Shown here: piece by piece, positions 976 through 15,887 of the stretch
Position numbering within the stretch: position 1 is the stretch's first letter
How the letters are laid out: every line of letters begins with the position of its first letter
Origin: Verrucomicrobiota bacterium
Lineage (GTDB): Bacteria > Verrucomicrobiota > Verrucomicrobiia > Limisphaerales > Fontisphaeraceae
DNA length: 56,979 nucleotides
Reading direction: 5' to 3'
NCBI GenBank assembly: GCA_037139415.1
Contig: JBAXGN010000018.1
Coordinates: 1-56,979 of the forward strand
Position numbers and translations under genes: made by a program
Notes under the pieces: generated by a model
The model's input: the letters and a program-made list of their open reading frames with translations, nothing else
What the model was told of the DNA's origin: nothing
The model's database searches: none

Positions 976-1707
976 ATGATTGAATCTGGCAATCCTGACG
1001 GCCTCAAAATCATGCCACTCATCCACCCTGAACCGTTACCGACGCCCGTCATCCCGGCGTTGCTAGCGCCCCTGCCGGCGGCGCTTACGGTGCCGTCCCG
1101 TTTTTCCCAGGATCTCCGGGATTTGGCGCAGCGCTTCGCCGACCGACCGGTGCGACTCTCCGAAATCCTCTCAGCCACGCAAGACCGGGGCTTCAACCTT
1201 TTGCTGCTGCTCATTGGGTTGCCGTTTCTTACGCCCATCCCGCTGCCGGGTCTTTCGACACCGTTCGGTTTAATGGTTTTGGCCATTGGCGCACGGCTGG
1301 CCTTGGGGCAACAGCCTTGGTTGCCGGAAAAACTCTTGCAGCGGGAATTGCCTGCCCGGTTTATCGCGCGGCTGCTGGCGACGGCCAGTCGGGTGGTGCG
1401 TTGGCTGGAATTCCTGCTCCGCCCGCGTTTGGATTTTTTGCATGGGCAGTGGATCTACCGGCGCATCGCCGGCACCCTTATCATGCTGTCGGGGTTATTC
1501 TTGCTGTTACCCCTTCCGATTCCACTGACCAACAGTTTCCCCGCGCTTACGGTGGTTCTGCTGGCCGCCGGGGCGATGGAGCGGGATGGGTTGTTCTTTT
1601 TGGCCGGCTGCGCCATGTTCACCGCGACCCTCGCCTATTTCGGGCTGCTCGCCTTTGGCGGTGTGCATCTCCTCGACAATCTATGGCGGACGATTTTCGG
1701 ATTATGA
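976..1707 (+). CDS. ExoD-family exopolysaccharide synthesis membrane protein
   Basis: The 243-residue product matches the ExoD family: a cytoplasmic N-terminal segment (DLAQRFADRPVRLSEIL), then hydrophobic segments rich in paired prolines (LPFLTPIPLPGLSTPFG near residue 80, and LLLPLPIPLTNSFPA near 180), and a last membrane span near 200-220. ExoD affects exopolysaccharide production and alkali tolerance in rhizobia; its biochemical role is unknown. An alternative ATG at 1012 removes 12 poorly conserved residues and may be the true start. The gene directly abuts a small upstream ORF. Confidence 0.8.
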   Translation: MIESGNPDGLKIMPLIHPEPLPTPVIPALLAPLPAALTVPSRFSQDLRDLAQRFADRPVRLSEILSATQDRGFNLLLLLIGLPFLTPIPLPGLSTPFGLMVLAIGARLALGQQPWLPEKLLQRELPARFIARLLATASRVVRWLEFLLRPRLDFLHGQWIYRRIAGTLIMLSGLFLLLPLPIPLTNSFPALTVVLLAAGAMERDGLFFLAGCAMFTATLAYFGLLAFGGVHLLDNLWRTIFGL

Positions 1708-1778
1708 AATCAAAACTCCCCGATTCTTCTCGCTCCGCGCCAGAAGCACAACCGTGATGGTGTCGATCCACTCGACGG

Positions 1779-1795
1779 GCAGGGCTGCATCAAGC
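1779..1795 (+). repeat. 17-nt fragment of the ~100-bp dispersed repeat
   Basis: This stretch is identical to the end of the long repeat found at 1905-2005 (inverted) and 51697-51798. A 17-nt exact match in a short gap is unlikely by chance, so it is probably a truncated third copy just downstream of the ExoD-like gene. Confidence 0.5.
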
Positions 1796-1904
1796 TCGGT
1801 TTGGTTCAAGCTGGAAGCGGCTGTTCAGGTGTTCCCATGGCAGCGGGATTACTCGAAATAAAGTGAAGCGATTAAGCCGATTCCCTCAGCCGGATGATGA
1901 AAAT

Positions 1905-2005
1905 CCTCTCCCCGAGGGAGAGGAAAGAGGTGAGGGGGTACGGAACCACAGGCCCTCTCACCGCGTATTATTCGTAACGCACCAACGCGCTTGATGCAGC
2001 CCTGC
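1905..2005 (-). repeat. ~100-bp dispersed repeat, copy 1
   Basis: On the minus strand this is nearly identical to 51697-51798. It consists of a unique-looking part (GCAGGGCTGCATCAAGCG, then GTTGGTGCGTTACGAATAA) and a palindromic tail, CCTCTCCC/GGGAGAGG, preceded by CCCCTCACCTCTTT. It overlaps the 3' end of the membrane gene at 1968-4178 and supplies that gene's last codons and stop. It is REP- or MITE-like; no coding function is apparent. Confidence 0.85.
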
Positions 2006-4178
2006 TCACCGGGCCGGCCAGCAGAGCCACGAGCGCATAGCACCCGGCTGCGGCCAGCGCGACGGCCAGGGTGCTGACGAATGCGGCCAGTAGGACGGCC
2101 GCGCCACCGCCAACGACGGCACCGAGGCCGTCAACGGCATAGAGCGCCGCGCGATCCTGCCCGTCCGCGCCGCCCGCCTGTTGCAGGAGCGCCGGAAAGC
2201 ACGGCCCGACCACTAACCCCAGCGGTAGGACCAGCAGCGCGACCCACAAGTGCGCCAGCGCCGGGGGCGTCGCGATGGCTAGGGGTGCCGTCGGGCCCAC
2301 GAGCCCCAACCCTAGTAGCGCGACCACCGCGCACAGCGCAGCTCCCCGCAGAACCGCGCCCGAACTCCACGGCAGCCGCAGGGCGAGCAACGCGCCGAGC
2401 GCCGACGCGGCGAGCAACCCACCCACGGTCCACGCGACCGCGAGCGGCGGGAATCCGAGCAGGAACTGCGCGTCGGCGAGCAGGGCTGCCTGGGCCAGCA
2501 TCAGCCCGGCGCCAAGCAACATGGCCAGCAGCAGGCTGCGGCGCGCCAGCGGCTGGCTTCGGCGGTGTGGCCGGACGAACAGGCGCCAGATCGCCAGCAA
2601 CGCGCCCAGCGCCAGCACGGCGTAGAGGGCAACCAAAATCGGATGGGGCTCGTAGAAAAACGGCCGTGCGTCCGTCGGCACGCCGAAAGCCCCCGGCCGC
2701 GGCTCCGCCGTCCGCAGCCGGGCGCCCACCGCCGCGGCGCTGGCGGCGAGGGCGGCGCGCTCGCCGGCTGTGAACGGGACGGCGCGCGCGAGCAGAAGCT
2801 GGGAGAACGGATTGCGCTCCTGATCCGGCAGCGCCAGGACCACCAGGTGCTCCGCCACGGATGCCGCGGCCACGCCGCGGGCCACCAACGCCGAGGTCAG
2901 CGTGGCGATCGTGCGATCGGCGATCTCCGGCGTGTTCTGCACCACCGCCAGCGTGCCGCCCGGAGACAGATGTTCGAAGTAGCCCAGCACCGCCTCGCGC
3001 GTCATCACCCAGTTCTGGACGCCCGCGAGCGAGTGCAGGACCGCCGGGTCGGTCTGCATCAGCGACAATTGCACCAGATCCCATTGCGCGGTGCTGGCGC
3101 GCAGGAAGCGGCGGGCCTCGTCGGCGTGCACGCGCACCTCCGGACGGTCGTAAACCCGGCCGCAGAACGCGCCCAGTTCGCGCACAAACGAAAGCATCGC
3201 GGCGTTGACCTCCACCGCGTCAATCTCGGACGCGCCCCCTTGCAGCGCCATCGCCACATCGTAGCCGCCGCCCGCGCCCAGCACCAGCACCCGCGCCCGA
3301 TGCAGCGCCCCAAACGGCAGGCGCTTCAGGCGCGCCAGTGTGTTGGCCTCCGCATCAGGGAACTCCGGTGCGCGCCCATCCCAGCGCACGACGCGCGCCA
3401 CGTACATGCGATCGGTGTAGAGGTAGCGCACCCACCGCTCGTCAGTCTGCACGAGGTCCGTGCGCGCGTAGCTATCCGTGCGCGTGCGCACCACCTGGCC
3501 GTGCCGCGCGAGGGTCTGCTCGACCAGGTGCGAGCGAGCGCCGGGCGTGGCCAGCGGGTCTAGGCACAGGAGCCCCCCTGGCGTAGCGAGCTGCGCGGGC
3601 AGCAGAACCACCAGCGGCGCGAGCAGCCAGAGCGGCCGGCGGTTCCGCGCCGCTGGCAGGAGCGCCAGCGCCGCCGGCACGAGCAACGCCAGCGCCAGGA
3701 ATGCCGCAGCGACATCTCCAAACGTCGTGAGTAGCCATGGCCCGAGGAAAGCCCCGCTGGCCCCGCCAAGCGCCTCCAACGCGAACACCGTCGAGGGTGC
3801 CGGCGACAGGCGATAGGCCCCGGCGGCGAAGGCCCCGGCGAGGAAGAACGGCCCGGCGAACGCACCAGCCAGAAAGAGGAACGGCGCGTTCACGGCGCAG
3901 ACCATGGCGACCACGCCCGAGAATGCGCCCAGCGCCGTGAGCCAGAGCAACAGTTGCCCGGACACCGGCCGCACCGCCGCCCACCGATGCAGGAAGGCGG
4001 CCCCCAGCCCCAACACCGCCAGACAGCCCGCGAGCAGCAGCGCGGTCAGGTGGGTGAAGAAGAACGCCGAGGTGATCCGCGTGAGCACCACCTCGAAGGC
4101 CAGCAAGGAGGCCGCGCTGCACAGCACGGCCAAGCCAAGGGCACGCTGAGTCACTGGTGGCACTTCTGGGAATTTCAT
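1968..4178 (-). CDS. Polytopic membrane protein with spermidine-synthase-like SAM-binding domain
   Basis: About 735 residues. The N-terminal third has roughly seven hydrophobic spans, the middle holds a soluble Rossmann methyltransferase-like domain, and the C-terminus has another group of spans. The central domain has the nucleotide loop VLVLGAGGGYD, then an acidic strand end (IDAVEVN) and VHADEARRFL, as in polyamine aminopropyltransferases fused to membrane segments. The aminopropyl-transfer activity of such fusions is usually unproven. GC is strikingly high, near 70% by eye, unlike the gene at 5.6 kb, which suggests transfer or strong compositional bias. The last dozen codons, including the stop, lie in a dispersed repeat, so the native C-terminus may have been replaced. 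I start at the ATG at 4178; one at 4214 is possible. Confidence 0.8.
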   Translation of the reverse strand: MKFPEVPPVTQRALGLAVLCSAASLLAFEVVLTRITSAFFFTHLTALLLAGCLAVLGLGAAFLHRWAAVRPVSGQLLLWLTALGAFSGVVAMVCAVNAPFLFLAGAFAGPFFLAGAFAAGAYRLSPAPSTVFALEALGGASGAFLGPWLLTTFGDVAAAFLALALLVPAALALLPAARNRRPLWLLAPLVVLLPAQLATPGGLLCLDPLATPGARSHLVEQTLARHGQVVRTRTDSYARTDLVQTDERWVRYLYTDRMYVARVVRWDGRAPEFPDAEANTLARLKRLPFGALHRARVLVLGAGGGYDVAMALQGGASEIDAVEVNAAMLSFVRELGAFCGRVYDRPEVRVHADEARRFLRASTAQWDLVQLSLMQTDPAVLHSLAGVQNWVMTREAVLGYFEHLSPGGTLAVVQNTPEIADRTIATLTSALVARGVAAASVAEHLVVLALPDQERNPFSQLLLARAVPFTAGERAALAASAAAVGARLRTAEPRPGAFGVPTDARPFFYEPHPILVALYAVLALGALLAIWRLFVRPHRRSQPLARRSLLLAMLLGAGLMLAQAALLADAQFLLGFPPLAVAWTVGGLLAASALGALLALRLPWSSGAVLRGAALCAVVALLGLGLVGPTAPLAIATPPALAHLWVALLVLPLGLVVGPCFPALLQQAGGADGQDRAALYAVDGLGAVVGGGAAVLLAAFVSTLAVALAAAGCYALVALLAGPVSRAASSALVRYE

Positions 4179-7878: not shown

Positions 7879-9333
7879 ATGACGACGCCTTTTTTTCCGC
7901 AGTTCCGCCCGCGCCTGGCCGCCTGCCGCCGCCAGGCCGTCCAAACCGTCCGCCGCGCCTCCCTGCCCGAATTGGAGCGCTATCTGGCCGATATCCTGCC
8001 CGCCCATCTCCTGTCCCAGCAGGACGAGGGGGACCACAGCCGCGCGCGCGTGTTCACCCTGGCCCTCACCCTGCAATGTTTTCTCTGCCAGGTGCTTAAG
8101 CCTAAGACGCCCTGCCGCGAGATCGTGCGTTTGGTGCAGGCACTCTTCCGCCTGCTGGGCCGCGGTCCCGTGGACGATAGTACCAGCGCCTATTGCCAGG
8201 CCCGCCGCCGCCTGCCCCGCGAGACGTTGGAACGCTGCCTAGCGGCCAGCGCCCAAACCGCCGATCGCCGGGTGGGCAAGGGCGGGGAACTGCAGGGCCG
8301 CCCGGTCAAGGTGGTGGATGGCTCCTCCACCCAACTGGCGGACACGCCGGCCAACCAGAAGGCGTATCCCCAACCCCGCACCCAGAAATCCGGCTGCGGT
8401 TTTCCCGTGCTCAAGTTCCTGGTCCTCTATTCGCTGGCCAGCGGGGCGGTGCTGGCGGTGGTCCTGGCCAGCCTGTACAATCATGATTTGCGCCTGCTGC
8501 GCCAGTTGTACGACGAGCTGCGCGCGGGGGACATCCTGTTGGGCGACCGGGCGTATGGGGATTACATCACGCTGGCGTCACTGCCGGAGCGCGGCGTGGA
8601 CGTCGTGGCCCGCATCCACCAGGGCCGGAAGGTGGATTTTCGCAAAGCCCGGCGGCTGGGTAAAAACGACGGGCTCTTTACCTGGCGCAAAGGCCTTCAG
8701 CAGTCCAATATTTTGGACGCCAAGCAGTGGCAGGACTTGCCGGCGCAAATCACGGTGCGGGTGATTCGCTTCACGGCCACGATCCGGGGCCGGCGTTGTC
8801 GGCGGATTACCTTGGTGACGACCCTGTTGGACCCCGTGCGTTATTCCGCCGCAGCGTTGATCGCCCTGTATGCCCGGCGCTGGCGGCTGGAATTATGCCT
8901 GCGCGACCTGAAGACCACCATGGGGATGGAACAGTTGCGCTGCCAGACGCCAGCCATGGTGGAAAAAGAACTATTGGCCTATCTGCTCGCGTACAATTTG
9001 GTGCGTTGCCTCATGGCCGAAGCGGTGGCCGCGCATCAGGGGGAGTTGGAGCGGGTGAGCTTCAAAGGCACTGTGGATGCCCTGCGCCGTTACGGTGCCG
9101 CGATGGCCCAGGCACGCTCCCAAAAGATGCGGGCCGCACTCTGGGCGGATTTACTCCTCAATTTGGTGCGCGACCAGTTGCCGGATCGGCCACACCGCCA
9201 AGAGCCGCGCGCCGTCAAACGGCGCCCCAAACCCTATCCCTTATTAACCCGCCCACGCCATCAATACAAAGAAGGGTTGCACCGCAACCGCTACTGGAAA
9301 AACAAACCCCGTAATTTCAAGCGCCTAAACTAA
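7879..9333 (+). CDS. IS4-family DDE transposase
   Basis: The 484-residue product has the IS4 catalytic layout: first Asp at 147 (VVDGSS), second Asp at 223 (LLGDRAYGDY), and Glu at 338 in the signature Y331-x2-R334-x3-E338-x6-K345. The C-terminus is basic. It cuts and pastes the element as a dimer. No frameshift or stop interrupts it, and inverted repeats flank it closely, so the element may be active. GC is higher than in the gene just upstream (5.6-7.4 kb). Confidence 0.93.
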   Translation: MTTPFFPQFRPRLAACRRQAVQTVRRASLPELERYLADILPAHLLSQQDEGDHSRARVFTLALTLQCFLCQVLKPKTPCREIVRLVQALFRLLGRGPVDDSTSAYCQARRRLPRETLERCLAASAQTADRRVGKGGELQGRPVKVVDGSSTQLADTPANQKAYPQPRTQKSGCGFPVLKFLVLYSLASGAVLAVVLASLYNHDLRLLRQLYDELRAGDILLGDRAYGDYITLASLPERGVDVVARIHQGRKVDFRKARRLGKNDGLFTWRKGLQQSNILDAKQWQDLPAQITVRVIRFTATIRGRRCRRITLVTTLLDPVRYSAAALIALYARRWRLELCLRDLKTTMGMEQLRCQTPAMVEKELLAYLLAYNLVRCLMAEAVAAHQGELERVSFKGTVDALRRYGAAMAQARSQKMRAALWADLLLNLVRDQLPDRPHRQEPRAVKRRPKPYPLLTRPRHQYKEGLHRNRYWKNKPRNFKRLN

Positions 9334-9504: not shown

Positions 9505-9638
9505 AGCGATAGAAGGTCTGCATGGCTCAAACAAGCAAATCTATCAGCGATCAGTGATACAACGGGGCGGGGCGGGACTGAGTGGACTGGGCAGAATTTG
9601 GTGAGGTAGATATTTTTGATTTGGAGAAGCTCTTACGC

Positions 9639-11930
9639 ATGTCAATTTTCAAACGATCCATCGGCGTCGTTTCACTTCTAATCGCGGCGCATCTATTTGC
9701 AACGCTTGGTTTCGCGGAGCCTGCCGGCCTGGTGATCGCCGCAGGCGCTGACTGGAAGGCGCTTCCCGACGCCGATCTCGCTGTGAAAGAGGGGACCGCG
9801 CTGGATTTTTCGGCATGGCTTGACCACGCTCCGGCGGGAAGCCGCGGGCGGATCATCGCGCGGCCCGATGGGACGCTGGCTTTTGCCAGCCAGCCGGATC
9901 GCCCGGTGCGCTTCTTCGGCGTCTCGGGCTTCCCCACCAAGGACCCGGAGGAAATCGAAGCCCTGGCCGACACGATCGCGCGGCAGGGTTATAACCTGGT
10001 ACGCCTGCATTTCCTGGATCAGTTCGCGGCGGACCAGAAGGCGTATTGGGGGAAGAAACTTTCCAAGGAAGCGCAGGCCGATTTCGACCGCCGCATGGAG
10101 GCGGGGGAACCTTTTCTGAATGCCAAGAACCTGGACATCATTGACCGTTTTGTGGCGGCACTGAAAAAGCGCGGCGTTTACCTGTATCTCGACGCGATGA
10201 CCTCTTGGACCGGCTGCTACCCCGCGAACTGCTGGTATCCGGAGAACGGGGTGCCGAGCATGAAACCGCGCCTTTATTATGATCCCGTCGCGCGCCGCCA
10301 CTGGCACAATGCGGTCAAGGCGCTGTTCACGCGCGTCAACCCCTACACCAAGACCCGGTTCGTTGACGATCCACAGGTGGTGGCGATACTCGGCGTGAAC
10401 GAGACCAGCACCGGCTTGGAAAGCTACAAATCGGATTGGGGCGGCGTGCCGGATGCGTTGTTGCCGCTGTGGCGGGCCTTCCTTGCCAAGCGCTTCGCCG
10501 ACGTTGCCGCATACCGGAAGGCCTGGGTTCTTTCGGATCCGAAAGTTGACAGCATCGGCAAGGCGCCCTTCTTCTCGAAAAACGACGTGTGGCACAGCGC
10601 GCGGGGGCGGATCGTGGCCGAGTTCATCAACCAGATGGAGGAGGAGAGCGCCGGGTGGATGGAGCAGGAGCTGCGGTCCTTCGGCTATCAAGGCTTGTTC
10701 ACGCAATACGACTGGCTGTACGCCCTGCGCCTGTATCTGCCGCGCTCGCGCGCCGGCTTGGTTTCCATGCATGGCTATTTCGCCCACCCCGAGGGTGCCT
10801 TCGGCCCCAAAGGCAAAACGTCTCCGAACAGCTCCCTGGCCGACGCTCTGAACTGGTGGCGGGGGATCGCCTCCGCGCGCATCGCCGGGCAACCTTTTGG
10901 GGTGATGGAGTACGGCCATGTGTATTGGAACCGTTACCGCTACGAGGAGGGCTTGTCGGTCGGCGCCTATGGCAGCTTTCAAAATATGTCCATCCTGACC
11001 GCCCATGCCTGGCCGGTCGCATTGAAGCCGTCGCAGGCAGGGCCGTTCCGGGTAGGTCTCGATCCGGTGGCGCGCGCCAGCCAGGTGGTCGCGGGCCTCG
11101 CCTTCATGGGCGGAGCGGTGGCGGCGGCTCCGCACCGGGTTGATATTCCGGTGAGCCGCGATCTGGCCCTGAAGCATTCTGAGCGGGGCATCAGCGGCGA
11201 CCAGACGAGGATCGGCCTGCTGACCGGCCTGGCGGTCGCGGTGGAAGGGCGGGTGCCGTCCGTTCCCGCGACGTTGCAGGTGCCGCTCGGAGATGGAACC
11301 AAGTCGCTTGATTCCGCCTTTCACTCGACGCTTGTGGACAGCGAAAGCGGCACGTTCGCCGGAGCGGTCGCCCAGTTGCGCGCCAAAGGCATCCTGCCGC
11401 AAGGCAACCGCACGGATGCGGCAAAGAAAATCTATGAAAGCGAGACGGGCGAAATCCTGCTCGACGCGCCTGGCAAGCGGCTGACCGTGAACGCTCCGGC
11501 GCTGGCGGGAATCTGTGCGGAGACGTTTGCCGGCGTGCCGCAGGCGGGCAAGCTGACGGTCGCGGCGGCATCGGTTCCCGCTTCGATCACGATGGCCGCA
11601 CGGGACGGAAAGACGCTGGAACTGTCGCACCGCCTGCTGCTGGTGGTGTCCACCGATGCGCGCAACAGCGGCGAGAGCTACGAGGATGACAGCGGCGTGG
11701 TGCTGCGCCAGGTCGGCAAGCCGCCGGTATTGCTGCGCACGGGCCGCTTCACGATTGATCTCGCCCGCGCCCCGAATGCCCCTGCGCTGCGCGCCTGGGC
11801 GCTGGCGATGAACGGCCAGCGGCGCGACGCGCTGCCGGTGGCCTCCATCCCCGGCGGCATCCGTCTGAAGATTGACACCGCCGCCTGGTCCTGCGGCCCG
11901 TCGCCGTTCATTGAATTGGCGGAAAAGTAA
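9639..11930 (+). CDS. Secreted clan GH-A-like glycoside hydrolase
   Basis: The 763-residue product starts at 9639, 10 nt after GGAGAAG, and has a signal peptide (VVSLLIAAHLFATLGFA). A TIM-barrel glycosidase pattern is visible: YNLVRLHFLDQF at strand 2-3, GVNETST with N254-E255 as the likely acid/base, and FGVMEYGHVYW with E424 as the likely nucleophile. The order and spacing match clan GH-A (GH5/GH42-like). The last 300 residues look like beta-sandwich domains. It is probably periplasmic or extracellular and acts on a plant or algal glycan; the exact substrate cannot be told. A cassette-type promoter lies 135-220 nt upstream. Confidence 0.7.
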   Translation: MSIFKRSIGVVSLLIAAHLFATLGFAEPAGLVIAAGADWKALPDADLAVKEGTALDFSAWLDHAPAGSRGRIIARPDGTLAFASQPDRPVRFFGVSGFPTKDPEEIEALADTIARQGYNLVRLHFLDQFAADQKAYWGKKLSKEAQADFDRRMEAGEPFLNAKNLDIIDRFVAALKKRGVYLYLDAMTSWTGCYPANCWYPENGVPSMKPRLYYDPVARRHWHNAVKALFTRVNPYTKTRFVDDPQVVAILGVNETSTGLESYKSDWGGVPDALLPLWRAFLAKRFADVAAYRKAWVLSDPKVDSIGKAPFFSKNDVWHSARGRIVAEFINQMEEESAGWMEQELRSFGYQGLFTQYDWLYALRLYLPRSRAGLVSMHGYFAHPEGAFGPKGKTSPNSSLADALNWWRGIASARIAGQPFGVMEYGHVYWNRYRYEEGLSVGAYGSFQNMSILTAHAWPVALKPSQAGPFRVGLDPVARASQVVAGLAFMGGAVAAAPHRVDIPVSRDLALKHSERGISGDQTRIGLLTGLAVAVEGRVPSVPATLQVPLGDGTKSLDSAFHSTLVDSESGTFAGAVAQLRAKGILPQGNRTDAAKKIYESETGEILLDAPGKRLTVNAPALAGICAETFAGVPQAGKLTVAAASVPASITMAARDGKTLELSHRLLLVVSTDARNSGESYEDDSGVVLRQVGKPPVLLRTGRFTIDLARAPNAPALRAWALAMNGQRRDALPVASIPGGIRLKIDTAAWSCGPSPFIELAEK

Positions 11931-11938
11931 GCTCCTGT

Positions 11939-12190
11939 TCAGAAAGAAAAAGAAACGGGGGCAATTTCATGTTTCCCCATTAACCAGTCCATCCAAACCC
12001 AAGTCGGACGATGCCCCGGGGCTACCAAGTACCAGGGAAAGCTGCTCCAAGGATACGCATAAGACAATAGGCATGGACCCGGAAATCCTGACGATCCACC
12101 TCGTCGTGGAAAAATGCCTTCCCGCCGTTCTCCACGCGACATCACTTGGCAGATGGCACCGGGATATTCAACGCGCAATTGCCGTGGCAT
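11939..12190 (-). pseudogene. Decayed REP-associated tyrosine transposase (Y1/RAYT)
   Basis: The start is a textbook RAYT N-terminus (MPRQLRVEYPGAI, then SRGERREGIF). After that the frame shifts: the shifted frame reads HDEVDRQDF and then RVHAYCLM, the usual next motifs, with the sequence between them missing. The original frame resumes with AYPWSSFPWYL and RPTWVWMDWLMGKHEI, the C-terminal motifs. The HUH catalytic histidines and the tyrosine helix fall in the deleted part. About 250 nt remain of a gene normally near 700-900 nt. Such enzymes mobilise REP repeats, which fits the repeats elsewhere in the window. Confidence 0.8.
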
Positions 12191-12248
12191 GGCGGCGAGC
12201 CACACAATTTTCGCTAAACAGCCGAGGCATTGTTATGATGCCCCCTTT

Positions 12249-12506: not shown

Positions 12507-14543
12507 ATGAAAAAACAACAACCACTGAACTTACCTAACTTTATTAAAGGCCTCGTGCTTGCGACGGTCATCCTATCAGGATGCCGAGTCCAGGCCATTC
12601 CAGGCCTGCAACTCGCGGTCCAAGGCACCAACGTGCTGCTTGCGTGGCCGAGCGTTGAAGGACAAACCTACATTGTTCAGTATCGGCGCACACTGGGCAC
12701 CAATACCCCCTGGCAAACGCTGACCAACGGCTTCCCGGCGGCCACGGAAACTAACTGGACTTCCTGGTTGCATTTGGGGGTAGTGGAATATCCCACGAAT
12801 GCCGCTAGCAGTGGCACCAATGGTGGTAGTGGTGGACCGCCTCCCTTGAATGCCATGACGCTTCAATCGGCGGGCGTAGCGGCAAAACCGGTTTATGAGG
12901 ATGTTACCGTCGTAAAAGACGGGCAAACAGTGACTCGCAGTCGCTTGGTGCCCTTGCCGCCCCCGCTACCACCGGTGTTGAATGCGGCAACTATGCGAAA
13001 CACCCTCCGCACCGCCGCCCTGAATCGCCTCCAAGGCGGGCCAAGACCAATGGGACAGGAAAACAGCGGGGAGAGTTCCGATTCTACCAACCGTTACGCG
13101 GGGTTTTATCAGGTCGTGCAGAACGGCGTGCAACTGTTTGGCATTCAGGACAGCGGCGTCTTGTCAAACGTAACTGAATTCAAAATCGAAGCAGCAACTC
13201 CAGATGGAAGCGACGGAAGGTTGGTCAATATCACTTTTTCTGCTGATGGCCTTCCTCTACCCGCAGTCGCCGATCTTGCCGCGCCATTTGCCTGGCCCCT
13301 AAAATTCACTTTAGACACCGGACGCCTGCTTAACGGGCCCCATTTGATTCAGGCTCAGGCGACATGGAATTCGGGGGGCATGGGAAGCGGAGTGAACCCA
13401 TTTTTCTCGGCGTCTAGTGAACCGATTTCAGTGACTGTTTCTAATGAAATTTCCTATCCAAATTGGATGGATGGTTTTGGGCAAGATAACACCGGTTCTG
13501 GCGCCTGCGCCTTCGTGGCGATGTCCGCCACACCGCAGGTGAACTGGCAACTGGACGTTTACAACAGCCAGCAACAATATATCGGTAGCGTATCAGGTCA
13601 GACTTCGGACGGGTCCGTTGAATTTGACTGGAATCTGGTTGGACCTGGCGGCATCACGAATACCGATTCTCAATATGCGTCAGTGCTGACCACCACCGAC
13701 CCGAACACCAGCGCGACCATTGCCCAGAAGCTTCTTCCCATCAAACTACTGCATTTGGATAATTGGACCCAGCAAGGCGGCTGGGTGGCAGCACGGTTAG
13801 ACATGTTTCCGGCCAACATGACGGGCTACGACACATGGGTTAATTCTACTGACACGATTGCCATGATGGCCGAAGCAATGACCACTCAAAATGAAGTTCT
13901 TCCCGTGCCACCGGCTCGGCAACCCGGACAACTCCTCGCCCTTAGCTGTTTGGGCACCAATTACGGCCAACGTGCGAGCGATTGGCAGCTATTGAAGAAC
14001 AGTTTGACCAATCCTTGTGTCCGTAACCTATATCTATATGCCCATGGCTGTCCGGACGCAATGGGGGACAACAAAGACGACGTATTGGAGAGCAGTGAAG
14101 TAGAAACCTTTCTCCATCAGAGTGTCCGGACAAATGCGCATAATTTTAGGTTCGTATTTATGGATGGTTGCAAATCAGACGGCACTTTCTGGCCTAAAGC
14201 TTTTGGCATACCGACCTCCACCATCACCAACATATTGTACTTCACTAAGAATAAAATCCGTCCGTGCGCGTTTGTGGGATGGGGCGCGGATCTTAACCTC
14301 GGTACCGGAACGCTCAATTCTCTAGGTGATATCACTTCCGGCACGATCCGCGACGGTTTCAGTTATTTCCGTTCGCAGTTTGTCAATAGCTGGACCGGGG
14401 CAATTGGTATCCGGTCGCCAATGCCACTATCGGCAGCTCTGCAGTTTGCAAAAGACAATTCTCTTGACGCCGTACAAGAGCCGTTTGTGGTTCGCGGGTA
14501 CACCGGTCTAAACTGGAATGAATACAACGATGTATTCTGGTAA
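12507..14543 (+). CDS. Lipoprotein with clan-CD-peptidase-like His/Cys pair
   Basis: The 678-residue product starts at 12507, 6 nt after GGAAGGA. The N-terminus ends in a lipobox (VILSGC), so it is probably lipid-anchored. Residues about 30-80 resemble the short IVQYRRT...W module of verrucomicrobial secreted proteins. The C-terminal part has a hydrophobic strand followed by H513-G (NLYLYAHGC) and, 42 residues later, a second strand ending at C555 (FRFVFMDGCKS). This is the order, context and spacing of the catalytic dyad in clan CD (CHAT, caspase-like) peptidases. No known family was recognised, and activity is inferred only from these motifs. It precedes a PepSY-like gene by 39 nt, probably in one operon. 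Confidence 0.55.
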   Translation: MKKQQPLNLPNFIKGLVLATVILSGCRVQAIPGLQLAVQGTNVLLAWPSVEGQTYIVQYRRTLGTNTPWQTLTNGFPAATETNWTSWLHLGVVEYPTNAASSGTNGGSGGPPPLNAMTLQSAGVAAKPVYEDVTVVKDGQTVTRSRLVPLPPPLPPVLNAATMRNTLRTAALNRLQGGPRPMGQENSGESSDSTNRYAGFYQVVQNGVQLFGIQDSGVLSNVTEFKIEAATPDGSDGRLVNITFSADGLPLPAVADLAAPFAWPLKFTLDTGRLLNGPHLIQAQATWNSGGMGSGVNPFFSASSEPISVTVSNEISYPNWMDGFGQDNTGSGACAFVAMSATPQVNWQLDVYNSQQQYIGSVSGQTSDGSVEFDWNLVGPGGITNTDSQYASVLTTTDPNTSATIAQKLLPIKLLHLDNWTQQGGWVAARLDMFPANMTGYDTWVNSTDTIAMMAEAMTTQNEVLPVPPARQPGQLLALSCLGTNYGQRASDWQLLKNSLTNPCVRNLYLYAHGCPDAMGDNKDDVLESSEVETFLHQSVRTNAHNFRFVFMDGCKSDGTFWPKAFGIPTSTITNILYFTKNKIRPCAFVGWGADLNLGTGTLNSLGDITSGTIRDGFSYFRSQFVNSWTGAIGIRSPMPLSAALQFAKDNSLDAVQEPFVVRGYTGLNWNEYNDVFW

Positions 14544-14550
14544 AATTGAA

Positions 14551-14573
14551 TGACCGCAAGGTCTTGAATTTTT
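14551..14573 (+). terminator. Weak hairpin followed by T-run
   Basis: GACC-GCAA-GGTC (14551-14562) is followed by TTGAATTTTTT. The stem is only 4 bp but has a stable tetraloop and extra AT pairs outside. It may attenuate rather than end transcription between the lipoprotein gene and the next gene. Confidence 0.35.
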
Positions 14574-14582
14574 TATGATGTT

Positions 14583-15887
14583 ATGATGACTCTTGATTTG
14601 CTTCAGGTAACACTACAATATAGCAACGCGTTGTTCTTGGCGGTGATGCCGCAGTTTTCCGATTATACCAAGGCGCTTGACTTGCCGGTCTCTCACCCCA
14701 TTACGCCGGCCGAAATCCGCCGGTTTTCGGTGGATCAAACGGCACCCATGCAATGCGATTTAGAACTGACCAACGGAATGGTCTTTTGGTATGCCCATGG
14801 TCACGTGTACCTCTTTGATGACAAACCTCATAACTACCGTAACAACCAGTATTCGCCCACCTTTCCCGAGAGTTTTATCGGGCCACTAAAGATGACCAAA
14901 GACGAGGCGGTTCAGCTAGCGCGTAAAAATGTCTCGGCCTTGGGGTATTCTGTCAAGCAAAGCCTCATGGACCTGGAGCCAGAAGTAATTTTGCCCCCCA
15001 CCGATGGCACCAACACCATTCCGCATTACCTTTTCAAATGGCCAAGCCTTTCGCCATGGGGCACTGTGGAAATGGAAATTGACGCGGAACGCAAAACGAT
15101 GGTGCATCTCAGTCTGCTGTCGGAAGTCTTTGACCGGGAACCGCCTAAAATCTCCGTCACGCCAAAATGGCGGCATCCCCGGTCGGAGATCAATCCGGCC
15201 TATGTGCAGGCCCTGATGTCCTTTGTGTTGCCGCAAGTTTCCGCGTTTGCCGAAAAACTTGAACTGCCCGTGAAAGTGCCGATCACCACCAACGATGTAC
15301 TGGAGTATGAATGTAAGCCGGGGGAGTTTTTGACCCTGCGCCTCACCAACGATTATTTTTTCAATTTTGGCTCCTATGGCTATGTGGAGGGCTTTTTTAC
15401 CCGGAAAACCTATTTCATTCGCGGGTTTGGGCACACCGATCTGCGCTTCAGGCGGCGTGGTGCCACAGTGGATGATTATGTCGGGGAATGGCGGATGAAC
15501 GATGAGGAGATGGTGGCGATGGCGCGGAATGCGGTGCACAAGCTGGGCCGAACACCGGCGGATTTCTTTGCTGACATACCACCCTACCGTGTCACCAAGC
15601 CGGTGGAAATGGGAAAATACGTGATACCCCGATCTTACATCGAGTGGATCAAGTGCCCGCCCAGGAATAATTTGGCTATCGCAGAACTTAAAGTGGAGAT
15701 TGACGCCGACAAGCGGTGCCTGCGGTCTTTTTGTTGGTTTAACGGCACAATGCCGCGTGAGTGGCCAAAGATTGAGGTTGCGCCTTATTTAAAAACCAAC
15801 AAGCCGTTCATGCCGCAAAGCCTTCAAGAATTCCGCAAGTCCGAGAAGTCATCGCTTGTGAGGCCGGACGTTCCGCCGCAGCCATAG
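14583..15887 (+). CDS. Protein with duplicated PepSY-like segments, partner of the lipoprotein gene
   Basis: The 434-residue product is built as two halves. Each has a segment resembling a PepSY alpha-beta unit: MTKDEAVQLARKNVSALGY near residue 100 and MNDEEMVAMARNAVHKLGR near 300. Each is followed by strands ending in VEMEID or LKVEIDAD. PepSY domains often inhibit or chaperone secreted peptidases. The gene lies 39 nt after a lipoprotein with a peptidase-like His/Cys pair, so an inhibitor role is conceivable but unproven. No signal peptide is seen at this start, and upstream ATGs run into a stop, so export is unclear. Confidence 0.55.
   Translation: MMTLDLLQVTLQYSNALFLAVMPQFSDYTKALDLPVSHPITPAEIRRFSVDQTAPMQCDLELTNGMVFWYAHGHVYLFDDKPHNYRNNQYSPTFPESFIGPLKMTKDEAVQLARKNVSALGYSVKQSLMDLEPEVILPPTDGTNTIPHYLFKWPSLSPWGTVEMEIDAERKTMVHLSLLSEVFDREPPKISVTPKWRHPRSEINPAYVQALMSFVLPQVSAFAEKLELPVKVPITTNDVLEYECKPGEFLTLRLTNDYFFNFGSYGYVEGFFTRKTYFIRGFGHTDLRFRRRGATVDDYVGEWRMNDEEMVAMARNAVHKLGRTPADFFADIPPYRVTKPVEMGKYVIPRSYIEWIKCPPRNNLAIAELKVEIDADKRCLRSFCWFNGTMPREWPKIEVAPYLKTNKPFMPQSLQEFRKSEKSSLVRPDVPPQP

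What the first reader, a model, noticed from the sequence alone, without database searches (positions are those of the whole stretch)
12507..15887. Lipoprotein with clan-CD-like dyad followed by a duplicated PepSY-like protein
H513-G and C555 sit at ends of hydrophobic strands 42 residues apart, like CHAT/caspase peptidases, in a lipid-anchored protein of otherwise unknown type. The next gene has two PepSY-like units, a domain that often inhibits peptidases. This could be a new peptidase-inhibitor pair at the cell surface.
Basis: inference. Interest (0 to 1): 0.55.

Follow-up and report, generated by a model that had tools for sequence, protein, structure and literature searches.

The report
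Secreted caspase-like peptidase with PepSY partner
Two neighbouring genes appear to encode a secreted protein-cutting enzyme with a caspase-like fold and a partner protein, built of repeated inhibitor-like modules, that probably keeps it in check; in the bacterial order of this genome the two genes usually stand together.

Summary
P1 (12507-14543) ends in a predicted caspase-fold domain: H513 and C555 follow strands 505-511 and 549-553, residues 421-672 best match SAVED-CHAT (Z 12.4), and profile comparison with family C25 puts HG on HG and C on C. H and C are present in 45 of 45 loci that cover both positions. P2 (14583-15887) is an internal duplication (E 1e-17) whose best structural match is the PepSY part of YpeB. 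A P2-type gene lies within 1.5 kb downstream of 40 of those 45 loci. In samples across the phylum both profiles ring only inside the window's order. No Pfam, NCBIfam or PADLOC family claims either protein. Two details fail: the lipobox is not conserved, and P2 here has no signal peptide. Most likely: exported cysteine peptidase plus cognate inhibitor, like SpeB-Spi or staphopain-staphostatin, but of other families. Activity and inhibition are not shown; chaperone and toxin/immunity readings stay open.

The parts
12507..14543 (+). P1, 678 aa, secreted caspase-fold protein (stop codon included)
12507..12596 (+). Signal peptide, residues 1-30; likely signal peptidase I site VQA|IPG; the LSGC string is not conserved in homologs
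   Evidence: by eye; no signal-peptide program was available
12597..12791 (+). N-terminal small beta domain, residues 31-95 (FN3-like by recall); the best conserved region of P1 by mean pairwise identity
13101..13445 (+). Ig-like domain, residues 199-313
   Evidence: model strands; Ig/FN3-like structural matches; the P1-type protein of G000:C151 hits Pfam Big_7 in the corresponding part
13446..13757 (+). FlgD-Ig-like domain, residues 314-417
   Evidence: the P1-type protein of G000:C151 hits FlgD_ig at E 7.8e-6, just below its cut-off
13767..14522 (+). Caspase/CHAT-fold catalytic domain, residues 421-672
   Evidence: SAVED-CHAT 8tl0_B Z 12.4, rmsd 3.7, 178 aligned; hhalign with C25 and CHAT
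14043..14045 (+). H513 codon CAT, predicted catalytic His
   Evidence: 45 of 45 covered loci
14169..14171 (+). C555 codon TGC, predicted catalytic Cys
   Evidence: 45 of 45 covered loci
14583..15887 (+). P2, 434 aa, duplicated PepSY-like partner, no signal peptide
14592..15188 (+). P2 unit 1 (helix plus four strands, then a PepSY-like helix plus strands)
15189..15812 (+). P2 unit 2

Best explanation
P1 is an exported cysteine peptidase. A signal peptide and Ig-like modules carry a C-terminal caspase/CHAT/gingipain-type domain that uses H513 and C555. P2 is its dedicated partner: PepSY-like modules that bind the catalytic domain and hold it inactive until it has left the cell (or, in homologs whose P2 has a signal peptide, in the envelope). 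In the model P1 has no pro-domain between its Ig modules and its catalytic domain, so P2 would do in trans what a PepSY propeptide does in cis. Shown by computation: fold, conserved dyad, duplication, linkage, co-occurrence. Inferred: proteolysis, binding, inhibition, and the place where P2 acts.
For: Fold: H513 and C555 follow two strands; VIA best match SAVED-CHAT, Z 12.4 over 178 residues. hhalign with C25 52% and with CHAT 66%, against 68% for CHAT versus C25 themselves and 0.4% for the unrelated P2 profile. Dyad in 45 of 45 covered loci. P2: the YpeB C-terminal region is first in Foldseek (prob 0.97, E 5.8e-3) and in VIA (Z 11.7); Pfam PepSY hits 2 of 65 unit members, best 8.5e-6. Linkage: 40 of 45 loci have a P2 unit within 1.5 kb downstream, 34 within 300 nt of the domain end; of 196 genomes 33 have both, 4 only the catalytic domain, 12 only the unit, Fisher P 5e-23. 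Two single-sequence searches made before any profile already put hits of both genes on 17 shared contigs in 16 genomes. Distances of the two proteins correlate over 30 pairs, Mantel r 0.685, 0 of 9999 permutations as high. Precedent: SpeB-Spi (a propeptide analogue) and staphopain-staphostatin, adjacent and co-transcribed (PMC2873492, passages read).
Against: No activity data. P1's model has mean pLDDT 70.6, and Foldseek's list is filled by Ig-like and other beta-domain hits; the CHAT match comes from the second aligner only. P2 has no Foldseek match at E 0.001 or better, and against the Pfam PepSY proteins of the order hhalign gives only 7%. For YpeB the part that best inhibits SleB in vitro is the N-terminal domain, not the C-terminal PepSY part (PMC6660665, passages). 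One P2-type gene lies behind a serpin, not a peptidase; 47 of 101 unit hits have no catalytic domain within 3.5 kb upstream. P2 in the window would be cytoplasmic while P1 is exported. Both members of the window's own family that were searched lack both genes. Co-inheritance alone would also give a Mantel correlation.
Confidence: 0.6

Rival explanations
1. P1 is the peptidase but P2 is a folding or stability partner (a propeptide-like chaperone or complex partner), not an inhibitor.
For: [quoted passage not shown] A P2-type gene also follows a serpin gene, and P2-type genes without a catalytic domain upstream exist.
Against: PepSY-fold proteins have been proposed mainly as inhibitors (PMC2954215, passages); P2 often has no signal-like stretch (35 of 58) and so could not help an exported enzyme to fold outside.
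Confidence: 0.2
2. Toxin and immunity: P1 is an exported effector whose C-terminal caspase domain attacks rival cells, and P2 is the immunity protein.
For: The domain is C-terminal in open frames from about 650 to 1725 codons with differing N-termini (Ig-like, cadherin-like, beta-helix), mostly followed by the small gene (40 of 45). Caspase-like C-terminal toxins are described as Tox-Caspase with Imm36 or Imm57 (PMC3482391, passages). Genome G021 has no P2 hit; behind its three catalytic domains stand 4, 3 and 6 small membrane proteins, most next to a scrap of the P1 C-terminus, as in cassette arrays of polymorphic toxins (recalled). In some close pairs the catalytic domain is less alike than the Ig parts (L008/L010: 0.48 against 0.69 and 0.65).
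Against: No RHS, PAAR, FilH, WXG or similar delivery domain at E up to 0.01 in the 11 P1-type proteins of relatives and of G000:C151 scanned with Pfam. Over 78 homolog pairs the catalytic core has mean identity 0.42 and the whole domain 0.31, against 0.46, 0.35 and 0.27 for the three beta domains: not hypervariable. Arrays were seen in one genome only.
Confidence: 0.15
3. P1 is a structural or adhesive secreted protein whose caspase-like domain only cleaves itself or is inert, and P2 is an unrelated neighbour kept by operon structure.
For: Beta domains make up much of P1; no catalytic assay exists.
Against: H and C kept in 45 of 45 covered loci at low overall identity, and linkage in 40 of 45, are hard to explain without a function of both.
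Confidence: 0.05

Closest known systems
SpeB-Spi (Streptococcus), staphopain-staphostatin (Staphylococcus), Bfp-Bfi (Bacteroides fragilis)
   Same: Exported cysteine peptidase with a small inhibitor gene (for Bfi, a predicted one) directly adjacent and co-transcribed; Spi is a propeptide analogue; one Bfi protein has a Sec leader (PMC2873492, passages)
   Different: Those enzymes are C10 and C47 (papain-type fold, recalled); here a caspase-type fold. Staphostatins are lipocalin-like; here PepSY-like repeats.
Peptidase family C25 (gingipains)
   Same: Secreted, with Ig-like modules (recalled for gingipains); YxGHG and C at matching places; hhalign 52%, E 1.4e-4; weak Pfam hits in 7 of 35 members
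   Different: No member reaches E 0.001 with PF01364; in P1 the Ig modules precede the catalytic domain; I know of no P2-type partner of C25 (recalled, not searched).
CHAT peptidases (SAVED-CHAT, TPR-CHAT)
   Same: Best structural match of residues 421-672, Z 12.4; hhalign 66%
   Different: PF12770 is not among the families listed for the 35 members at E up to 1; the CHAT proteases named in PMC11417357 (passages) are CRISPR effectors, P1 has a signal peptide.
YpeB (PepSY) with SleB; M4 propeptides
   Same: P2 fold with tandem PepSY-like modules; partner of an exported hydrolase
   [quoted passage not shown] listing); P2 here has no signal peptide.
Tox-Caspase polymorphic toxins with Imm36/Imm57
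   Same: C-terminal caspase-like domain followed by a small partner gene (PMC3482391, passages)
   Different: Imm57 is described there as mostly alpha and Imm36 as BH3703-like; P2 is PepSY-like. No delivery domain found.

Membership tests
Clan CD (caspase/gingipain/CHAT fold) | Alpha/beta fold with catalytic His at the end of one strand and Cys at the end of the next (topology recalled) | tested here: met
   on a predicted model of moderate confidence
Clan CD (caspase/gingipain/CHAT fold) | Conserved HG and C in homologs, aligned with those of a known family | tested here: met
   H and C in 45 of 45 covered loci; HG on HG and C on C against C25 and C14; against CHAT only the C half aligned
Clan CD (caspase/gingipain/CHAT fold) | Cysteine peptidase activity | not testable with these tools
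   needs an assay
Peptidase family C25 | Match to Pfam PF01364 at a significant level | tested here: not met
   7 of 35 members at E up to 1, best 0.0088
CHAT (PF12770) and C14 (PF00656) | Match to the Pfam profile | tested here: not met
   neither is among the 8 families listed for the 35 members at E up to 1
PepSY (PF03413) | Match to the Pfam profile by P2 itself | tested here: not met
   no PepSY hit for P2 at E up to 5; 2 of 65 unit members match, best 8.5e-6
PepSY / YpeB-like fold | Helix plus antiparallel strands in tandem, structural match to a solved PepSY protein | tested here: met
   5boi first in both searches, Z 11.7 over 205 residues with rmsd 11.1, so the modules match better than their arrangement; ranks 2 and 3 are uncharacterised proteins (Z 9.4, 8.2)
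Bacterial lipoprotein | Conserved lipobox Cys as mature N-terminus | tested here: not met
   LSGC in P1; by eye none of 13 homolog N-termini has a Cys at that place
Peptidase with adjacent cognate inhibitor | Adjacent genes, conserved linkage | tested here: met
   40 of 45 loci
Peptidase with adjacent cognate inhibitor | Inhibition of the enzyme by the partner | not testable with these tools
   needs an assay
Polymorphic toxin system | Delivery domain or repeats (RHS, FilH, PAAR, WXG and others) | tested here: inconclusive
   Pfam at E up to 0.01 on 11 P1-type proteins gave Ig, cadherin-like, beta-helix (just below cut-off), TSP3 and a few weak odd hits, no delivery domain; two of the 11 had no hit at all, and Sec-exported toxins without repeats exist (PMC3482391 table)
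Polymorphic toxin system | Arrays of toxin C-terminal scraps with immunity genes | tested here: inconclusive
   array-like loci seen in one genome, G021, with membrane proteins in place of P2

The most novel reading that the evidence does not exclude
An order-wide weapon-and-armour system: caspase-fold C-terminal domains mounted on varied adhesive, Ig-bearing exported proteins, each guarded by PepSY-repeat immunity proteins whose number of repeats and compartment change, and replaced by arrays of small membrane proteins in one lineage. To my knowledge it would be the first use of PepSY modules against a caspase-fold enzyme.
Probability: 0.15. Interest if true: 0.75.

Novelty: new variant of a known kind. 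Interest (0 to 1): 0.55.

Why it matters
If true, PepSY modules, known from metallopeptidase propeptides and YpeB, also control caspase-fold enzymes, and do so in trans from a neighbouring gene. Neither protein is claimed by the curated libraries searched, the two are tied to each other in one bacterial order, and the idea can be tested with two small genes. Pairs with and without a signal peptide on P2 offer a natural comparison of where such a guard acts.

Tried and rejected
Lipoprotein reading: rejected on homolog N-termini. Anti-phage defence: no PADLOC hit for P1 or P2; the neighbours looked at (TPR protein over cut-off, ABC-2 membrane protein and GH5-like protein just below cut-off; a dehydrogenase-like gene by recall) do not suggest a defence island. 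Viral carriage: one scan of viral contigs with P1 found no relative. Sequence search of solved structures: P1 alone gave antibody chains at E 0.02 or worse, the catalytic profile a ribosomal protein at 0.17, the P2 unit profile 'CHD_buttress' at 0.0048: no use. Between-gene signals: fold z-score -1.6, 5 terminator-like sites against 5.0 expected, 7 promoter-like sites against 3.4 (sd 1.8): nothing to build on. DUF6034 and AlkB hits of P2 are far below their cut-offs. In P2's VIA list the vibriolysin propeptide (4.5), UipA (3.7) and a BLIP-like protein (4.4) stand no higher than copper amine oxidases (up to 5.1), so I do not count them. Families absent from structural lists are not counted against membership.

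Rows dropped before counts: one search covers the loci loaded for it (54 catalytic stretches); one further place, G079:C47:8706-9356, was not loaded (it has a unit 46 nt downstream). Of the 54, 9 do not cover both catalytic columns and are left out of the 45; 4 of those 9 have a unit within 1.5 kb. Of the 5 unlinked among the 45, two lie at a contig end (G121:C103, G034:C233), one is a broken copy with its P2-type gene upstream (G076:C334), one is G021:C11 and one is G040:C512, whose next ORF did not match the unit profile (E 3.5). One search, by genome-search hits and a 1 kb rule, gives 38 of 54. The unit and catalytic profiles were partly built from loci fetched for the other gene, so the single-sequence count (17 shared contigs; 54 contigs with P1 hits, 32 with P2 hits) is the cleaner one, though many of the 54 are short hits to one part of P1. 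All 45 loci were found by similarity to the family, in which the H and C motifs weigh; the signal rule is a simple hydrophobicity window and some of the 58 ORFs are fragments. Potempin/KLIKK papers were listed but not read.
Full report
What is there. The window holds two adjacent genes on the + strand. P1 runs from ATG 12507 to TAA 14543 (678 aa), P2 from ATG 14583 to 15887 (434 aa), 39 nt apart. H513 is followed by glycine, and C555 lies 42 residues on. Neither protein reaches a curated cut-off in Pfam or NCBIfam, and neither has a PADLOC hit.

P1 anatomy. A signal peptide is followed by a small beta domain, a low-confidence linker, two Ig-like domains and a C-terminal alpha/beta domain. The second P1-type protein of the same genome, G000:C151, hits Big_7 and, just below its cut-off, FlgD_ig in the corresponding region. 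In the model H513 follows strand 505-511 and C555 follows strand 549-553. Residues 421-672 match the SAVED-CHAT filament 8tl0_B at Z 12.4, rmsd 3.7, 178 residues; the other rows shown chiefly cover the Ig-like region. Foldseek alone lists Ig-like and other beta-domain matches, and the model is of moderate confidence (mean pLDDT 70.6; most blocks of the catalytic domain 75-90), so I sought independent support.

Independent support for the fold. I aligned 35 catalytic domains from the window and relatives (A6); H513, R548 and C555 are the invariant columns there. Profile comparison with C25 domains from the order gives 52% probability, E 1.4e-4, with HG on HG and C on C; with CHAT 66%, E 5.4e-5, over the C half only; with C14 15%, again HG on HG and C on C. 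CHAT against C25, two families accepted as one clan (recalled), give 68% on the same scale, and an unrelated profile 0.4%. Pfam C25 is the only family hit by several members (7 of 35, best 0.0088). P1 is thus about as far from C25 and CHAT as those are from each other: same clan, no named family.

Conservation. Of the loci loaded from the window's genome and its relatives, 45 of 45 that cover both columns have H and C; at R548 40 have R, one K, one S and three a gap. In genome G021 two further copies lack the His part altogether.

P2 anatomy. Its halves align with E 1e-17. Homologs have one, two or three such units. The model is good (mean pLDDT 85, pTM 0.78). The C-terminal region of YpeB, made of PepSY domains (PMC6660665, passages), is the first match by Foldseek (probability 0.97, E 5.8e-3; no match reaches 0.001) and by VIA (Z 11.7, 205 residues, rmsd 11.1, so single modules fit better than their arrangement). 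Two uncharacterised proteins (Z 9.4, 8.2) and YycH (7.0) follow. By sequence the link is thin: Pfam PepSY in 2 of 65 unit members, best 8.5e-6, and 7% against the ordinary PepSY proteins of the order.

Linkage. Two searches with the single window proteins put hits of both genes on 17 shared contigs in 16 genomes. With profiles, 37 of 196 relatives (the window's genome included) have the catalytic domain, 45 the P2 unit and 33 both; the two genomes of the same family have neither. Of 45 loci with the dyad, 40 have a unit within 1.5 kb downstream on the same strand, 34 within 300 nt of the domain end. In the other direction, 54 of 101 unit hits have a catalytic domain within 3.5 kb upstream and 47 do not. 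Distances in the two families correlate over 30 pairs (Mantel r 0.685, 0 of 9999 permutations); common descent of the genomes alone could give part of this. The genome of the window has a second, diverged pair at G000:C151.

Distribution. In samples drawn across the phylum the catalytic profile rings in 2 of 387 genomes and the unit profile in 2 of 377, the window's own and one other of its order each time. A pattern scan of 84,980 species genomes gave 20 loci: 14 titled Verrucomicrobia or the like (one 'subdivision 3'), one 'Limisphaerales', two 'bacterium', and three on contigs of 4.0-4.7 kb titled Bacteroidales, Bacteroidia or Bacteroidetes. The last three may be mis-binned; I could not test that.

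Where they act. Of 13 P1 homologs whose N-terminus can be read, 12 have Ala or Gly directly before the next domain and none keeps the Cys of the LSGC string, so a lipid anchor is unlikely (by eye). P2 of the window starts straight into its first unit. By a crude rule 23 of 58 P2-type ORFs have a signal-like stretch and 35 do not. Cytoplasmic control of an exported peptidase is known for staphostatin B (title in the reference list of PMC2873492), and a Bacteroides guard of the staphostatin type has a Sec leader (same paper, passage).

Mechanism. I think P2 binds the caspase-fold domain and keeps it silent until P1 has left. PepSY-fold proteins have been proposed as inhibitors of partners on the same or another protein (PMC2954215, passages). 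But for YpeB the N-terminal domain, not the PepSY part, was the most effective in vitro inhibitor (PMC6660665, passages), so a chaperone or stability role is a real rival. A P2-type gene behind a serpin gene also shows that P2-type proteins can have another neighbour.

Toxin reading. The catalytic domain is C-terminal in frames of very different length and N-terminus, and caspase-like C-terminal toxins with Imm36 or Imm57 partners are described (PMC3482391, passages). Genome G021 has no P2 hit; behind its three catalytic domains stand 4, 3 and 6 small membrane proteins (by a hydropathy window), most next to a scrap of the P1 C-terminus. Against it, no delivery domain was found in the 11 P1-type proteins scanned, and over 78 pairs the catalytic domain is not hypervariable, though in some close pairs it is less alike than the Ig parts. 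In that reading too P2 would bind and silence the domain.

Known or new. Searches of open-access full text for clan CD or CHAT with PepSY (2 papers), Verrucomicrobia with gingipain (69, 15 listed), Limisphaerales or Pedosphaera with peptidase or inhibitor (8), and caspase-hemoglobinase or PepSY (343, 12 listed) listed no paper whose title or abstract start describes such a pair. I read passages of five papers only, and most papers of subscription journals are not in that library.

Noticed in passing
L152 (G026:C70:1-4500), 1210-3266: A one-unit P2-type gene with a signal-like N-terminus lies directly behind a serpin gene (Pfam Serpin 9.6e-104) instead of a peptidase.
   Followed up: partly
L192, L193, L194 (genome G021, contigs C11, C34, C24): Arrays of 4, 3 and 6 membrane proteins of about 100-130 aa, many visibly paralogous, interspersed with repeated scraps of the P1 C-terminus, behind P1 catalytic domains; on C34 and C24 also proteins of 200-300 aa (YAFYDPPSRRMKAA type), repeated on C34, with a shared boundary repeat. 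They look like recombination cassettes.
   Followed up: partly
L133 (G000:C151:11500-16500), 1250-3912: Second P1-P2 pair in the genome of the window; its P2 has one unit and a signal-like N-terminus.
   Followed up: partly
L146 (G016:C5:500-5500), 2246-3420: An ORF that looks like a P1 gene with an internal deletion (signal peptide and first domain run into a P1-like C-terminus), still followed by a P2-type gene.
   Followed up: no
L139 (G040:C512), 1564-2298: A 245-aa ORF overlapping the end of a diverged P1-type gene; no match to the P2 profile, but possibly a very diverged partner.
   Followed up: no
window 11939-12205 (-): 88-aa ORF that resembles the start of REP-associated tyrosine transposases (recalled, not tested); an ORF starting alike precedes the serpin pair in L152 at 180-1124.
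   Followed up: no
window 7879-9333 (+): 484-aa ORF that looks like an IS4-type transposase (recalled, not tested), 3 kb upstream of P1.
   Followed up: no
window 9582-11930 (+): 782-aa protein with a weak glycoside hydrolase family 5 match just below the Pfam cut-off (E 1.5e-4).
   Followed up: no
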